A stretch of DNA of 64,000 nt from Microscillaceae bacterium (lineage in GTDB: Bacteria; Bacteroidota; Bacteroidia; Cytophagales; Microscillaceae). Below the pieces are notes generated by a model. That model was not told where the DNA came from. It did no database searches and saw nothing but the letters and a program-made list of their open reading frames with translations. Within the stretch, counting starts at the first letter, position 1. Each line of letters opens with the position of its first letter. Below are positions 22,591 through 43,331 of the stretch, piece after piece. Where the stretch lies: positions 62,001-126,000 of the forward strand of contig JANWZA010000011.1 of the NCBI GenBank assembly GCA_025054775.1, given 5' to 3'. The translations under genes were made by a program, and so were the position numbers.

Positions 22591-22641
22591 CAGGATTTTA
22601 TCTTTCAATAAATCCACAAACGCTCTACTCTCAGGCACAAT

Positions 22642-22668
22642 AATAAAAAGCCCCCACAGAGTGAGGGC
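22642..22668 (-). terminator. tracrRNA terminator
   Basis: Minus-strand stem GCCCTCAC / GTGGGGGC (8 bp including one G-U, loop TCT) followed by TTTTTATT. Confidence 0.8.
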
Positions 22669-22740
22669 ATAGGCTTTCGCCTGCGACATTACGTCTTATT
22701 GTGAAAAGATTACAATAAGATCAAAAAAGTTTTTTACATT
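22642..22740 (-). ncRNA. tracrRNA of the type II-C CRISPR system
   Basis: On the minus strand, 22740 to about 22697 reads as an anti-repeat: AATGTAAAAAAC matches the array repeat, followed after interruptions by TTGTAATC and TCACAA. It can therefore pair with nearly the whole crRNA repeat, perfectly over the last 18 nt of the repeat (through AAAAAAGTTTTTTACATT). Downstream come a small GC hairpin AGGC-GAAA-GCCT (22671-22682) and a terminator hairpin, GCCCTCAC-TCT-GTGGGGGC (22650-22668), followed by a T-rich tail. Length is about 99 nt. It guides Cas9 and RNase III processing of pre-crRNA. Confidence 0.88.
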
Positions 22741-22742
22741 TG
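22735..22742 (+). promoter_or_regulatory. Candidate -7 box for cas9, on the end of the anti-repeat
   Basis: TACATTTG fits TAnnTTTG and lies about 52 nt before the cas9 ATG. Its first six bases are the end of the repeat-like sequence (TACATT). No TTTG is seen at -33. It is separated by only two bases from the opposing tracrRNA -7 box. Confidence 0.45.
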
Positions 22743-22744
22743 TG

Positions 22745-22776
22745 CAAAGGTACGAAATAAAAAATTATTCTCCAAA
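22745..22776 (-). promoter_or_regulatory. tracrRNA promoter
   Basis: Minus strand TTTG (22773-22776), 20 nt, then TACCTTTG (22745-22752), both exact matches to the Bacteroidota promoter. The predicted start falls within a few bases of 22740, exactly where the anti-repeat begins. Confidence 0.75.
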
Positions 22777-22794
22777 TAAATTTCAAAAAAAAAT

Positions 22795-23793
22795 ATGAAA
22801 ACTCTCGGTTTAGACATCGGTACAAATTCTATCGGCTTTGCTTTGCTAGACGATACGCAAGGTGAAATTTTGTGGCAAGGGGTGCATATTTTCCAAGAAG
22901 GGGTGAACAGAAACAAAGGACGTGAGGAAAGCAAAAATGCTGAACGCAGAGCCGCCCGCCAAGCACGAAAATTGACTCGGAGAAGGCACGACCGCAAGGT
23001 TACTCTCATGCGCCTGTTGCAAGCCATAGGGCTTTGCCCTACCTCAGAGGAAGAACTAGCCCACTGGAAAGCCCTAGACCCTTATGAACTCAGAAAAAGA
23101 GGACTCGACGAAAAACTCTCTCCTTTTGAGTTCGGTAGGGCTATTTATCACCTCAACCAAAGGCGCGGATTCAAAAGTAACAGAAAAGCAACCTCAGAAG
23201 AAGAAAAAGGAACTCTCTTTAAGGGAGATAAAAAAATGGGAAAAAGGGGCATCGATGAAATTAAAGACGCTCTGCAAAATCAAAACTTTCGTACCTTAGG
23301 TGAATATTTGTATTCCCTCAACCCACACGACGAACGCCGACGCAACCGCTACACCTTGCGTGCTTTCTACGAACAGGAATTTGACCTGCTTTGGAAAAAA
23401 CAAAACCCTACTATTGAAGCTAATTTTGAGGAAGTAGTTAGGAAATTTGTTCATAAAAAATTCCAGCCCAAAGTATTGCAACACGACTGGAAATTCCTTA
23501 TCAAAGATTACATTATTTTTTACCAAAGAAAACTCAAATCGCAAAAAGAACTTGTAGGCAAATGTACGCTTGAACCTAAAAAAAGAAGATGCCCCAGTAG
23601 TATGCTTATTTTTCAGGAGTTTAGGTTACTGGATAAACTACATTCTATCCGAATTACAAGAGAAACTGATACCCAAGATAGTTCTCTTTCATCAAAAAAA
23701 AAAGTTCGGGAAAAAGAACCAGTATTAAAAGTCTTATTTCTTTGTTTGAAAAGCCACTCGATACCCAAGAAAAACACAAAGATACTCCTTTAA
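22795..23793 (+). CDS. cas9: Cas9, N-terminal part (RuvC-I, bridge helix, REC), frameshifted
   Basis: 332 residues as read. RuvC-I is KTLGLDIGTNSIG with catalytic D7; the arginine-rich bridge helix follows (about 45-75, with RRAARQARKLTRRRHDRK), then the REC segment including HLNQRRGFKSNRK and LVGKCTLEPKKRRCP. Homology to Cas9 stops at an A10 tract (23694-23703); the last 30 codons after it are out-of-frame residues ending at TAA 23791-23793. A -1 shift at the tract joins it to the frame that carries the rest, giving a 1112-residue protein, the usual type II-C size. The start codon follows an A-rich leader, normal for Bacteroidota. Confidence 0.85.
   Translation: MKTLGLDIGTNSIGFALLDDTQGEILWQGVHIFQEGVNRNKGREESKNAERRAARQARKLTRRRHDRKVTLMRLLQAIGLCPTSEEELAHWKALDPYELRKRGLDEKLSPFEFGRAIYHLNQRRGFKSNRKATSEEEKGTLFKGDKKMGKRGIDEIKDALQNQNFRTLGEYLYSLNPHDERRRNRYTLRAFYEQEFDLLWKKQNPTIEANFEEVVRKFVHKKFQPKVLQHDWKFLIKDYIIFYQRKLKSQKELVGKCTLEPKKRRCPSSMLIFQEFRLLDKLHSIRITRETDTQDSSLSSKKKVREKEPVLKVLFLCLKSHSIPKKNTKILL
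23694..23703 (+). other. A10 slippery tract in cas9
   Basis: Ten adenines, read in the upstream frame as TCA AAA AAA AAA GTT. This includes the slippery heptamer A AAA AAA in the correct phase for -1 slippage, and long A tracts also cause RNA polymerase slippage. The two cas9 frames are both open only between 23682 and 23793, and this is the obvious place for the join. It could equally be a real one-base deletion or a read error. Confidence 0.8.
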
Positions 23794-26132
23794 AGCCTGA
23801 AGAATTACAGTTAAAGCCTGAAGAATTACAGTTGGCTTTTGAAGAATTTAATCTCAAAAAAGAATGGACAATAAAAGATTTGCTTAAATTACTCAATCTC
23901 CAAAACTGTAAAACCAACTATTCTCCCGAAGAGAAATTTAAGGGAAATACTACCGCCCATGCCCTTGCTAGTGTGTTTGGAGAAGAAAAATGGCTTAGTT
24001 TTTCAGAAGACAAAAAGCATCATATTTGGGAAGTATGCTATAATGCTACCGACGAAGATTGGCTACTGAATTATGGCAAAACCCATTGGCAACTCAATGA
24101 GAAGCAACTTGAAAAACTTAAAAAAGTGAGTTTTGAGAAGGATTATGCCCGCTTGAGCTACAAAGCCCTCGCAAAACTCGTCCCAAAAATGAAACAAGGC
24201 TTATCTTATGCCGATGCCTGCCAAGAATTAGGCTATCACCATTCGGAAAGTGCCAGCAAATATGATGAAAAATTAGGACTTTTAGGAGAGCCTCCAAATA
24301 TTCGCAATCCTATCGTACAGCAAGCCCTCTTTGAAATCCGAAAAGTAGTAAATGCGATTATTCAACAATTTGGCAAACCTGATATTATTCGCATAGAGTT
24401 GGCTCGTGAACTAAAAAATAGCAAAGAACATCGCGAAGAAGAACAAAAAAAGATTAAAAAAAATGAGGAGAATAATCAACGTATCAAAAAGATACTGCTC
24501 CAAGAATTGCCTGCTCTTGGAGGCAAAGAGGAAAATATTAGCCGAAATGACGTTATAAAGTACAAACTTTGGGAGGAGTGCAAAGGAATATGCCCTTATA
24601 CAGGCAGAAATGTATCGGTAGCACAACTATTTAATGGCGAGTTCGAGGTAGAACACATTTTGCCCTATAGCCGAACCCTTGACGATAGCTTTGCCAATAA
24701 AACCATTTGTGAACGAGAGTTCAACCTAAAAAAAGGCAACCTAACCCCCTGGGAAATGTATGCACAAGGCATAATTACCAAAGAACACTACAATGCTATT
24801 TTGCAAAGAGTTAAAAATTTTAGCTACAACAAATACAAAAAATTTGAGCAAGAGGAATTAGATGAGGACTTTATTAAACGACAACTGAACGACACGGCTT
24901 ACATTGCGCGCGAAGCTAAAAAATGGATTTGTACCATTCTGGACGAAAACAACGTACAAGTTTCCAAAGGAGAGGCTACTAGAACGCTCGGAAGGCTGTG
25001 GGGGCTAGACAAAATCCTTAATAAATATCATTTAAACATAAAAAATCGCGAAGACCAACGACACCACGCCATCGATGCTATAATAGTGGCTTGCACTACC
25101 CGAAGCGTATTGCAAAAACTTTCTACCTATAAAAGCAAAGGACTAAAACACGAAAAAAAAGATTTTCCAGCTCCTTGGGAAAGCTTTCATTCTGACGTAA
25201 AAAAGGCAGTCAATCAAATCTTGGTACACTATAAAATCCGTAAGCGGTTGCGTGGTCAATTGCATAACGAAACCATTTATGGGGCCGTCTTGGATAAAAA
25301 TAGAAACCACCTCACTGATGAGTCTAAACAAAAAGTATATGCAGTTCGCAAGCCCTTGCATAGCCTTACCCCTGCTCAAGTTCACAAAATTGCAGACAAA
25401 ACCATCAGGGAATTAGTAAAACAAAGAATTAGAGAATTTGGAGCAGACCCCAATGCGAAGAAGTGCAAAATCCCCAAAAACTGCTTTAATGAACCTATTT
25501 ATATGCCATGCAAAAATGGCAGAGGAAACCCTATTAAAAAGGTAAGGATACATGATGTAGCAAAGCACAACATTTTGTTACGAGAGTTTTCTGACGTAAA
25601 ACCTGAAAAAAAACGCCCCCACAAGCACGCTTACGTGGAAACAGAGAATAACCACCATATTGTGATTTATGAAGAAAGCGAATGGGATAGCAAAAAAAAG
25701 AAAACCACTACCAAGCAAACAGGTGAAACAATTTCCTTGCTAGAGGCTATTGAACGCAAAAAACAAGGCTTGCCTGTAATCCAAACAGATTTGGGCGAAG
25801 GAAAAAGGTTTTTATTGAGCCTCATGAAAAATGAAATGGTACTTTTGGATAACCCAGACGAGCATTTTTTGACAGCCAAATTGCGCTGGGACGAGCAGAA
25901 AAAACAATTTTTTGACCAAAATGACCAACCCCTAAGCCACCAAGAACTAAGCAAATACCTTTACAGAGTACAAAAATTTGACAAGAACCTGAGTATCGTC
26001 TTTCGGCATCATTTGGCTTCAAAAGTAGATGAGGTGACAAAAGAAGCAGGCTACTTCAATCGCAGCGCCTCTAAATTCAAGGGCATTAAGGTAGAAATTA
26101 GTATTTTGGGAGAAATTTCGCCTGCTAAGTAA
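23742..26132 (+). CDS. cas9: Cas9, C-terminal part (RuvC-II, HNH, RuvC-III, PAM-interacting)
   Basis: The frame is open from 23682; the first ATG is at 23742, but this is probably not a true start. From that ATG: RuvC-II IRIELARELKNS (E219), HNH core FEVEHILPYSRTLDDS with H305 and N328, and RuvC-III QRHHAIDAIIVACTT (H442, D445), then a 340-residue C-terminal region for the guide and PAM. All nuclease residues are intact, so nothing but the frameshift suggests decay. In the joined protein these sit near 535, 621/644 and 758/761. A 7-residue unit LKPEELQ occurs twice near the start (exact 21-bp duplication). Confidence 0.88.
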   Translation: MFEKPLDTQEKHKDTPLKPEELQLKPEELQLAFEEFNLKKEWTIKDLLKLLNLQNCKTNYSPEEKFKGNTTAHALASVFGEEKWLSFSEDKKHHIWEVCYNATDEDWLLNYGKTHWQLNEKQLEKLKKVSFEKDYARLSYKALAKLVPKMKQGLSYADACQELGYHHSESASKYDEKLGLLGEPPNIRNPIVQQALFEIRKVVNAIIQQFGKPDIIRIELARELKNSKEHREEEQKKIKKNEENNQRIKKILLQELPALGGKEENISRNDVIKYKLWEECKGICPYTGRNVSVAQLFNGEFEVEHILPYSRTLDDSFANKTICEREFNLKKGNLTPWEMYAQGIITKEHYNAILQRVKNFSYNKYKKFEQEELDEDFIKRQLNDTAYIAREAKKWICTILDENNVQVSKGEATRTLGRLWGLDKILNKYHLNIKNREDQRHHAIDAIIVACTTRSVLQKLSTYKSKGLKHEKKDFPAPWESFHSDVKKAVNQILVHYKIRKRLRGQLHNETIYGAVLDKNRNHLTDESKQKVYAVRKPLHSLTPAQVHKIADKTIRELVKQRIREFGADPNAKKCKIPKNCFNEPIYMPCKNGRGNPIKKVRIHDVAKHNILLREFSDVKPEKKRPHKHAYVETENNHHIVIYEESEWDSKKKKTTTKQTGETISLLEAIERKKQGLPVIQTDLGEGKRFLLSLMKNEMVLLDNPDEHFLTAKLRWDEQKKQFFDQNDQPLSHQELSKYLYRVQKFDKNLSIVFRHHLASKVDEVTKEAGYFNRSASKFKGIKVEISILGEISPAK
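23792..23833 (+). repeat. Exact 21-bp tandem duplication inside cas9
   Basis: 23792-23812 and 23813-23833 are identical, beginning AAAGCCTGAAG, and encode LKPEELQ twice in the downstream cas9 frame. The duplication keeps frame. It starts at the stop of the upstream frame and about 90 bp after the A10 tract. Confidence 0.85.
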
Positions 26133-26210: not shown

Positions 26211-27101
26211 ATGCTTAAAAGAACACTTTTATTTGTCAATCCTGTACGTATCCGTACCAAAAACGAGCAGCTGATAATTCAGTTGGAAAATGAAACACAA
26301 CCCATCCCTATTGAAGATGTGGGCTACATAGTCTTGGATAATGCCGAAATTTACATTTCGCCTCCTGCTATTGAAAAGTGCTTGCAATACAATGTAGCTA
26401 TTGTCTATTGTGATAGCAAGCACTTGCCTTGCGGTATGTTGCTCAACTTGGAAGCTAATACCCTCCAACAAGAACGCTTTGAGGCTCAAATCCAAACTTC
26501 TGAGCCACTCAAAAAGCAGCTTTGGAAACAAATCGTAGAAGCTAAAATCTTGAATCAAGCCCTGCTTTTAGAAAAAATAGGGCAAAAGGCTGAAGTCCTT
26601 TTCCAAAAAAGCAAACAAGTGCAAAGTGGAGATACTACCCAACAGGAAGCCCAAGCTGCTCGTATCTATTGGGCAAACCTCTTCCCCAAAGAAATAGCAT
26701 TTTACAGAGCCAGAACGGGCAATCCACCTAATCATTTGCTCAACTATGGCTATGCTATCATTAGAGCAGCTATGGCACGAGCCCTAGCAGGAGCAGGGCT
26801 ATTAGCTACCCTAGGCTTGCACCACCACAACCGCTATAATGCCTTCTGCCTTGCAGACGATATGATGGAACCTTACCGACCATGGGTAGATAGAGCCGTT
26901 TGCGAACTAGTGGGCTCAGGAGAAGACTACCAAGCAATAAACAAAACGCACAAAATACGACTACTCAACGTTTTGGCAGAAGACTCCGAACTGAAAAACG
27001 AAACCATACCTCTTATGAATGCTATGCAAACCTCAGCTGTTTCGCTGGTTAAGTGTTTTATGGGAAAGAGCAGAAAATTAGTGTTTCCTACAATTTTTTG
27101 A
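26211..27101 (+). CDS. cas1: Cas1 integrase, type II
   Basis: 296 residues, standard for type II Cas1. An N-terminal beta domain (to about 80) is followed by the helical catalytic domain, with E146 in QQEAQAARIYW, H205 in GLHHHNRYNAF, and D217/E220 in LADDMMEPYRPW as the metal ligands. Cas1 with Cas2 inserts new spacers at the first repeat. The gene is intact, so the adaptation part of the locus looks functional. cas2 begins 2 nt after its stop. No csn2 or cas4 is present, which makes this subtype II-C. Confidence 0.95.
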   Translation: MLKRTLLFVNPVRIRTKNEQLIIQLENETQPIPIEDVGYIVLDNAEIYISPPAIEKCLQYNVAIVYCDSKHLPCGMLLNLEANTLQQERFEAQIQTSEPLKKQLWKQIVEAKILNQALLLEKIGQKAEVLFQKSKQVQSGDTTQQEAQAARIYWANLFPKEIAFYRARTGNPPNHLLNYGYAIIRAAMARALAGAGLLATLGLHHHNRYNAFCLADDMMEPYRPWVDRAVCELVGSGEDYQAINKTHKIRLLNVLAEDSELKNETIPLMNAMQTSAVSLVKCFMGKSRKLVFPTIF

Positions 27102-27103
27102 CT

Positions 27104-27472
27104 ATGCCACGCAAAAAGAAAAAATTTTTGTCCACTCACCAAACTGCCCTTAGTGCTTATAGAATTATGTGGATTTTTGTTTTTTTTGATTTACCCACAG
27201 AAACCTCCGAGTTGCGAAAAGAGTACACCCTGTTTCGCAAAAAACTGCTCAAAGACGGATTTCAAATGCAGCAGTTTTCGGTATATCGCCGCTTTTGTGG
27301 AAGCCGCGAAAATGCAGACGTACACATCAGACGAGTGAGAAAAGCCGTTCCCCCCGAAGGAATGGTAAGCATTTTGCTTGTAACCGACAAGCAATTTGGG
27401 GAGATGATAAACATTGTGGGTGCAAAACGGCAGCCACCCCCCAAACCACCCCAACAATTGACCTTGTTGTAA
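27104..27472 (+). CDS. cas2: Cas2, type II
   Basis: I chose the ATG at 27104 (MPRKKKKFL), just after the cas1 stop; an upstream in-frame ATG at 27053 would run 16 codons inside cas1 and is not typical. 122 residues. The core strand WIFVFFDLPTETSELRKEY carries the conserved aspartate, then KKLLKDGFQMQQFSVYRRFC and VSILLVTDKQFGEM. The C-terminus is proline-rich (QPPPKPPQQ). Cas2 dimers hold two Cas1 dimers in the spacer-integration complex. Intact. Confidence 0.93.
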   Translation: MPRKKKKFLSTHQTALSAYRIMWIFVFFDLPTETSELRKEYTLFRKKLLKDGFQMQQFSVYRRFCGSRENADVHIRRVRKAVPPEGMVSILLVTDKQFGEMINIVGAKRQPPPKPPQQLTLL

Positions 27473-27596: not shown

Positions 27597-28749
27597 AATG
27601 TAAAAAACTTTTTTTTGTAATCAAATCACAACGGTACAATGCGTGTAAAGCCAGTAATCTTTAATGTAAAAAACTTTTTTTTGTAATCAAATCACAACTA
27701 GGAATGGATTTGAAGAAAATAAATGAAAAATGTAAAAAACTTTTTTTTGTAATCAAATCACAACGTGTAATGCGTGTAAAGCCAGTAATCTTTAATGTAA
27801 AAAACTTTTTTTTGTAATCAAATCACAACAGTTTGTCTATCAATTTAGACAAAGCCTCAATGTAAAAAACTTTTTTTTGTAATCAAATCACAACGATACC
27901 AACCCAACTCCGAACCAACTCTTTAATGTAAAAAACTTTTTTTTGTAATCAAATCACAACCACTATATCGCTTGCCTTGAGGGTAAACTTAATGTAAAAA
28001 ACTTTTTTTTGTAATCAAATCACAACACCGCCACCTGCTACCCCCGAAAGCCCTTTAATGTAAAAAACTTTTTTTTGTAATCAAATCACAACACACATAA
28101 CGTACATAACGCCAACTATAGAATGTAAAAAACTTTTTTTTGTAATCAAATCACAACCCGTGCGCTAACTTGGCTTGAAGCCTTTTTAATGTAAAAAACT
28201 TTTTTTTGTAATCAAATCACAACAAGTAATAGTTAATTGTGTTGTGTTCATAAAATGTAAAAAACTTTTTTTTGTAATCAAATCACAACATATCACGTTG
28301 ACGCAAATCGGGGTCGTCCAATGTAAAAAACTTTTTTTTGTAATCAAATCACAACATAATCGTCTAAGCGTTGCTTTTGCTCAGTAATGTAAAAAACTTT
28401 TTTTTGTAATCAAATCACAACTCGTTGCGAAACGGAGAAAATTGCAATTTTAATGTAAAAAACTTTTTTTTGTAATCAAATCACAACTGTTTTCTGGCTT
28501 AGCCGCACAAAGCGTTTAATGTAAAAAACTTTTTTTTGTAATCAAATCACAACAGATATTGCAAGTTTGCAGTGCGAAAATCAAATGTAAAAAACTTTTT
28601 TTTGTAATCAAATCACAACTAATGATGCGGGCGTGAATTATGTAGCAAGAATGTAAAAAACTTTTTTTTGTAATCAAATCAGCACAGAAACGTTTTTTTG
28701 TGGTTCAGAGTTTCAATGTAAAAAACTTTTTTTGTATACAAATATTATC
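27597..28749 (-). CRISPR. Type II-C CRISPR array: 17 repeats of 36 bp, 17 spacers of 29-30 bp, plus a degenerate terminal repeat
   Basis: On the plus strand the repeat starts AATGTAAAAAAC, then T8, then GTAATCAAATCACAAC. On the minus strand it starts GTTGTG, the usual start of type II repeats, and that is the strand able to pair with the tracrRNA; hence crRNA is assigned to the minus strand. Repeats begin at 27597, 27663, 27729, 27794, 27859, 27925, 27991 and so on to 28650. The first 16 are identical. The 17th (28650-28685) ends AGCAC in place of ACAAC. The last (28715-28749) is strongly degenerate. Spacers 1 and 3 share 25 nt. Confidence 0.97.
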
Positions 28750-42974: not shown

Positions 42975-43331
42975 CTTTTAATACTAAATACTTAATTTTT
43001 AATACTAAATGTTTAATTTTTAATACTATATACTTAGTTTTTAATGACAGATATTTATTTTTTAATACTAAATGTTTAATTTTTAATGTCAATTGTTTAG
43101 CATTTAATGTTAAATGTTTAATACTAAATATTTAATAATTACTATTTAATATTATATACTTAACATTTAATAATAAGTACTTAATTATTAGTGCTAAATA
43201 TTTACTATTTAACAATCGAGGTTTAACATATAACATCAAATATTTATTATTGAATAATAAGTATTTAGTTTATAATATTAAATACTTACTTTTTAACATT
43301 AGAAGCTTACTATTTAATACCATTTTTGTAC
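42975..43331 (+). repeat. Phased array of about 17 degenerate 21-bp AT-rich units
   Basis: Units start every 21 bp from 42975 (42975, 42996, 43017 ... 43311) with no insertion or deletion. A common form is TTTTTAATACTAAATACTTAA. Units differ at several positions, and unit 8 (43122-43142) is the most altered, but the period holds throughout. 21 bp is two turns of B-DNA, so A/T tracts stay on one face of the helix. Because 21 is a multiple of three, one frame shows a 7-residue pattern (like KYLLFNI), but it has no start codon and a TAA pair in unit 8. Confidence 0.85.

What the first reader, a model, noticed from the sequence alone, without database searches (positions are those of the whole stretch)
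22795..26132. Cas9 is split by a frameshift at an A10 tract with all catalytic residues intact
The N-terminal frame (RuvC-I to REC) and the C-terminal frame (RuvC-II, HNH, RuvC-III) overlap only at 23682-23793, where TCA AAA AAA AAA GTT contains a phase-correct slippery heptamer. A -1 slip gives a 1112-residue protein of normal II-C size. Because the rest of the locus looks healthy, three readings are open: programmed or transcriptional slippage that limits Cas9 dose, a phase-variable on/off switch, or a simple indel or read error. The first two would be new for Cas9 (inference).
Basis: partly seen in the sequence, partly recalled or inferred. Interest (0 to 1): 0.75.

Follow-up and report, generated by a model that had tools for sequence, protein, structure and literature searches.

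The report
Cas9 gene frame-broken at A10 tract
In this bacterium's assembled genome the cas9 gene of an otherwise complete CRISPR locus is cut into two reading frames at a run of ten A's, most likely through an ordinary small slip in that run, although the run could still let the cell make a little full-length protein or switch the gene back on.

Summary
cas9 is split into an N-frame (22795-23793) and a C-frame (23682-26132) that overlap only around A10 (23694-23703). The RuvC and HNH motifs, cas1, cas2, tracrRNA and the array look intact, and no second Cas9 was found.

New here: the break lies in an expanded linker at the tip of a REC-lobe hairpin. Nearly all relatives lack this expansion. 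It is bounded by an 11-bp direct repeat 92 bp apart (chance about 0.3%), with a perfect 21-bp tandem duplication just downstream. None of 31 related cas9 genes has A10 or more, and all have one open frame. So the tract is lineage-specific and not a conserved recoding signal.

The assembly reads long runs well: 29 intragenic A/T runs of 9 or more in 864 kb lie in intact frames, and only one other run (A9, in a Uma2 gene) is broken.

Most likely this is a real, recent replication slip in A10, leaving cas9 off or strongly reduced. Low-level full-length Cas9 through transcriptional slippage is plausible from published A9-A11 genes but is not shown here. Programmed dosage control or phase variation is not excluded, but nothing specific supports either. 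Assembly error cannot be ruled out without reads.

The parts
22635..22765 (-). tracrRNA: anti-repeat, hairpins and terminator
   Evidence: Folds far better than shuffles (z -4.5). Conserved with the cas9-linked region of the nearest relative L043, with matching changes on both sides of the terminator stem. A 20-nt exact match to the array repeat lies here.
22795..23793 (+). cas9 N-terminal frame: RuvC-I, bridge helix, start of REC
   Evidence: 332 aa; TIGR01865 positions 2-310, E 3.3e-67
23668..23678 (+). left copy of the 11-bp direct repeat GATACCCAAGA
   Evidence: frame-relevant repeat expected by chance in about 0.3% of windows
23694..23703 (+). A10 tract where the frame changes
23760..23770 (+). 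right copy of the direct repeat, 92 bp from the left copy
   Evidence: the stretch between the copies has no other copy in the genome
23790..23831 (+). perfect 21-bp tandem duplication (KPEELQL twice) in the linker
23682..26132 (+). cas9 C-terminal frame: rest of REC, RuvC-II, HNH, RuvC-III, PAM-interacting part; first ATG only at 24189
   Evidence: 816 codons open; TIGR01865 positions 304-1070, E 2.1e-128; PF13395 and PF18541
26211..27101 (+). cas1, type II
   Evidence: TIGR03639, E 1.3e-85
27053..27472 (+). cas2
   Evidence: TIGR01573, E 9.2e-18
27597..28720 (-). CRISPR array: 16 identical 36-nt repeats with 29-30-nt spacers, then degenerate repeats at the far end
   Evidence: orientation inferred from pairing with the tracrRNA

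Best explanation
A real, recent loss-of-frame allele of an ordinary type II-C cas9. The linker at the tip of a REC-lobe beta-hairpin was expanded in this lineage, probably by an in-frame insertion of about 31 codons with a short flanking duplication, plus a 21-bp tandem duplication. This brought in a long A run. Replication slippage in that run then put the two halves out of frame (inferred). As assembled, the gene encodes a 332-aa N fragment and no full Cas9, so interference is off or strongly reduced. Because the run is as long as known transcriptional slippery sites, and insertion of an A, the favoured direction at A runs, is the change that restores the frame, a minority of transcripts may still give a full-length 1112-aa Cas9 (inference). 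The allele is also revertible by a further slip.
For: Frame break exactly at the only run of 10 or more in the window. Homology is continuous across the break and the C-frame is undamaged for 2.4 kb. Relatives keep one open frame and have at most A9. The linker expansion is absent from nearly all relatives, sits at a beta-hairpin tip (L043 residues 301-313, local pLDDT 82-89; numbering), and is bounded by a direct repeat unlikely by chance. The 92-bp spacing equals an in-frame 93 minus one. Long runs elsewhere are in frame: 12 and 17 runs of 9 or more in two samples, and 5 of 6 clearly intragenic exact A10 runs among 30 examined. Another gene, Uma2, is also broken at an A9 run. tracrRNA and array are intact. 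Slippage precedents: A11 in tssM1, 20-25% (PMC4256274); A9 in Thermus dnaX, about 50% (PMC1088944).
Against: No reads were available, so an assembly error in the run length is possible. No second strain or same-genus genome was available to show an in-frame allele. The nearest cas9 is only 52% identical. The in-frame history of the linker is inferred: codon usage of the inserted stretch does not separate coding from non-coding. The C-frame shows no further decay, which also fits a gene still in use.
Confidence: 0.57

Rival explanations
1. Assembly or sequencing error: the true run has a different length and cas9 is intact.
For: Homopolymers are the classic error site. The genome is a 65-contig draft. 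Everything else in the locus is intact.
Against: 29 other intragenic A/T runs of 9 or more in 864 kb are in frame, and 5 of 6 clearly intragenic A10 runs among those examined are in frame. Frame breaks are rare and found in dispensable genes.
Confidence: 0.18
2. Transcriptional slippage or a phase switch at A10 is used by the cell to limit or toggle Cas9 (functional, selected).
For: A10 is long enough for slippage in other bacteria (PMC4256274, PMC1088944). The needed direction, one added A, is the favoured one in E. coli reporters with 7-11 A (PMC6260861). The C-frame and all catalytic motifs are undamaged.
Against: Tract and linker are not conserved in any relative. No structure follows the run. 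Other A10 runs in this genome sit in ordinary in-frame genes. No switching or dose data. No paper on a phase-variable cas9 was found in the held library.
Confidence: 0.13
3. The 92-bp repeat-bounded insertion itself, not a slip in A10, broke the frame, and the A10 came in with it.
For: 11-bp direct repeat 92 bp apart, joining the frames if one copy plus the intervening 81 bp are left out; about 0.3% by chance. Relatives lack this segment.
Against: It needs the inserted DNA to carry, by coincidence, an A10 and an open C-frame. A10 runs are rare: 40 exact A10 or T10 runs in 3.0 Mb. The segment has no other copy in the genome and no clear element structure.
Confidence: 0.09
4. A natural two-piece Cas9 in which N and C polypeptides assemble.
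For: The break falls in a linker of the REC lobe, and split Cas9 works in engineered form (own knowledge).
Against: The C-frame has no ATG before 24189, about 400 bases past the N stop; only a TTG at 23742 would give the whole C part.
Confidence: 0.03

Closest known systems
Type II-C CRISPR-Cas9 (nearest: Cas9 of Microscillaceae bacterium Prado074, L043, same protein as L003)
   Same: Gene order tracrRNA-cas9-cas1-cas2-array, Cas9 motifs, conserved tracrRNA
   Different: cas9 here is in two frames; expanded linker and A10 tract
tssM1 of Citrobacter rodentium (transcriptional slippage at A11, PMC4256274)
   Same: Prematurely ended gene with a long A run just before the stop; adding an A to the transcript restores the full protein
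   Different: Slippage was shown there by RNA mass, protein and function; here only sequence, and no conservation
Naturally truncated Cas9 in Mycoplasma gallisepticum house-finch isolates (PMC11893278) and degraded CRISPR in Spiroplasma (PMC4607517)
   Same: Natural inactivating mutations of cas9, including a frameshift and REC-lobe truncations
   Different: Those M. gallisepticum mutations are mostly stop codons, some seen in several isolates; here a single genome with a revertible A run

Membership tests
Type II-C CRISPR-Cas | Cas9 with RuvC I-III and HNH, of compact size | tested here: met
   motifs present across two frames
Type II-C CRISPR-Cas | Only cas1 and cas2 besides cas9 (no csn2 or cas4), with tracrRNA and array | tested here: met
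Type II-C CRISPR-Cas | One open reading frame for Cas9 | tested here: not met
   this copy is broken, relatives are intact
Transcriptional-slippage gene (tssM1 type) | Run of 9 or more A/T at the frame junction, in phase | tested here: met
   A10
Transcriptional-slippage gene (tssM1 type) | Heterogeneous transcripts and full-length protein | not testable with these tools
   needs RNA and protein
Transcriptional-slippage gene (tssM1 type) | Conservation of the tract in relatives (supporting feature for functional use) | tested here: not met
   31 related cas9 genes, none with 10 or more A; linker absent
Programmed -1 ribosomal frameshift (dnaX type) | Slippery heptamer in phase | tested here: met
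   A AAA AAA in the N-frame
Programmed -1 ribosomal frameshift (dnaX type) | Stimulatory structure downstream | tested here: not met
   z +0.26 for 23694-23793
Phase-variable contingency locus | Tract length varies between cells or strains with on/off phenotype | not testable with these tools
   no reads, no second strain; no same-genus genome appeared among the genomes searched

The most novel reading that the evidence does not exclude
The A10 tract is a working control on Cas9 dose: transcriptional slippage, or reversible replication slippage, keeps type II-C interference low or off in most cells while the array and guide RNAs stay ready.
Probability: 0.12. Interest if true: 0.65.

Novelty: new member of a known kind. 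Interest (0 to 1): 0.32.

Why it matters
If the tract proved to be a working switch, it would be a simple way to carry CRISPR immunity at low autoimmune cost, and it would mean that some cas9 genes annotated as pseudogenes are still expressed. If it is an ordinary slip, it is one more case of natural, easily reversed loss of Cas9, and a caution about calling such loci active or dead from the consensus alone.

Tried and rejected
Transposable element as the source of the linker segment: no second copy in the genome, no clear inverted ends. Codon usage to date or place the frame switch: not discriminating. Independent copies of the locus: none in plasmids or viral contigs, and the genome-contig scan gave only relatives of 49% identity or less. 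Self-targeting spacers as a reason for loss: no strong match in the genome. Protospacers: none convincing in phages, and no exact match of the shared spacer core in viral contigs. The structure model of the relative is of modest overall quality (pLDDT 68, pTM 0.37), so only the locally confident hairpin is used.

Full report
What is there. Window 22795-26132 holds one cas9 in two frames. The N-frame (332 aa) runs from RuvC-I into the REC lobe. The C-frame (816 open codons) holds the rest of REC, RuvC-II, HNH, RuvC-III and the C-terminal part. The two halves match the Cas9 model TIGR01865 at consecutive positions, 2-310 and 304-1070. The frames overlap only at 23682-23793, and the overlap contains A10 at 23694-23703, the sole single-base run of 10 or more in the window. 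No second Cas9 was found in the genome (one RuvC_III match).

Health of the locus. cas1 and cas2 are intact. The array has 16 identical repeats and degenerate ones at its far end. A tracrRNA lies upstream on the minus strand. It folds much better than shuffles (z -4.5) and is conserved in the nearest relative, with matching changes on both sides of the terminator stem. No spacer has a strong match elsewhere in the genome. The locus therefore looks either recently inactivated or still in use.

Relatives. Among relatives, cas9 was found in one other genome of the family (L003; the same gene is L043, from a Microscillaceae bacterium in Cytophagales, which places the window's family by inference). 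That Cas9 is intact, 1069 aa, 52% identical to the C part. In all, 33 related loci (31 distinct genes) were compared. The searches report one open frame for each match, and none has an A run of 10 or more (two have 9). The tract is therefore not a conserved recoding site.

The linker. Aligning the region shows that the stretch between the strand ending SIRI and the helix AFEEFN is about 40 residues longer here than in the nearest relative. In that relative the site is a beta-hairpin tip, residues 301-313, with good local confidence in an otherwise modest model (numbering). One other Cas9 (L007) also has an extended linker here, so insertions at this site are tolerated. The expansion has two visible sources: a perfect 21-bp tandem duplication (23790-23831) and a stretch bounded by the direct repeat GATACCCAAGA at 23668 and 23760, 92 bp apart. 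A repeat with frame-joining spacing occurs in about 0.3% of comparable windows or shuffles; this was found after looking and is not a planned test. The stretch is single-copy in the genome.

Order of events (inference). If the 92-bp insertion alone broke the frame, it must by coincidence also carry an A10 and an open C-frame. A10 is rare: 40 exact A10 or T10 runs in 3.0 Mb. An in-frame insertion of 31 codons followed by a one-base contraction of the run explains the position of the break, the open frames and the spacing of 92 together. Codon usage cannot decide between the two.

Error or real? No reads are available. In the window plus two samples (864 kb, about 640 coding frames), 29 A/T runs of 9 or more lie inside intact frames. 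Of 30 exact A10/T10 runs looked at, six are clearly inside genes and five of these are in frame. The other clear break at a long run is a Uma2-family gene at an A9, whose two halves match the profile at 18-114 and 113-169. Run lengths thus seem well called, and breaks fall in dispensable genes, which favours a biological slip over an error.

Mechanism. By replication slippage the allele is off and can revert (inference from the run length). Full-length Cas9 could still arise at low level: A11 in tssM1 gives 20-25% frame-restored product (PMC4256274), A9 in Thermus dnaX about 50% (PMC1088944), and insertion is at least twice as efficient as deletion in E. coli lacZ reporters with 7-11 A (PMC6260861). 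The rate in this lineage is unknown. Ribosomal -1 frameshifting lacks a downstream structure. Separate translation of the C part lacks an ATG before 24189.

Compared with what is known. Natural loss of Cas9 is documented, for example four truncated forms in Mycoplasma gallisepticum, one by frameshift and two cut in the REC lobe (PMC11893278), and degraded CRISPR in Spiroplasma (PMC4607517). Slippage rescue of broken bacterial genes is also documented. No paper on a phase-variable or slippage-controlled cas9 was found in the held library, which is limited. The finding is therefore a new member of known kinds unless function of the tract is shown.

Verdict. Observation confirmed. Most likely a recent A-run slip in a rapidly changing linker of an ordinary type II-C cas9, with possible leaky expression. 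The striking readings remain open but unsupported.

Noticed in passing
L070:4295-4835 (same genome, contig C34 about 24295-24836): Uma2-family putative restriction endonuclease gene broken at an A9 run (profile 18-114 then 113-169), with a probable further frame break upstream.
   Followed up: partly
C34:19743-24143 of the same genome (L069-L070): Long surface-type protein with a T9SS sorting domain split into two frames without a homopolymer.
   Followed up: partly
22785-22793: An A9 run ends one base before the cas9 ATG; slippage there could affect transcript starts or the leader.
   Followed up: no
27633-27662 and 27765-27793: Two spacers share a 25-nt core (AATGCGTGTAAAGCCAGTAATCTTT), as if taken from variants of one target; no viral-contig match.
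   Followed up: partly
42976-43301: AT-rich array of about 21-bp units (15.5 copies), not examined.
   Followed up: no
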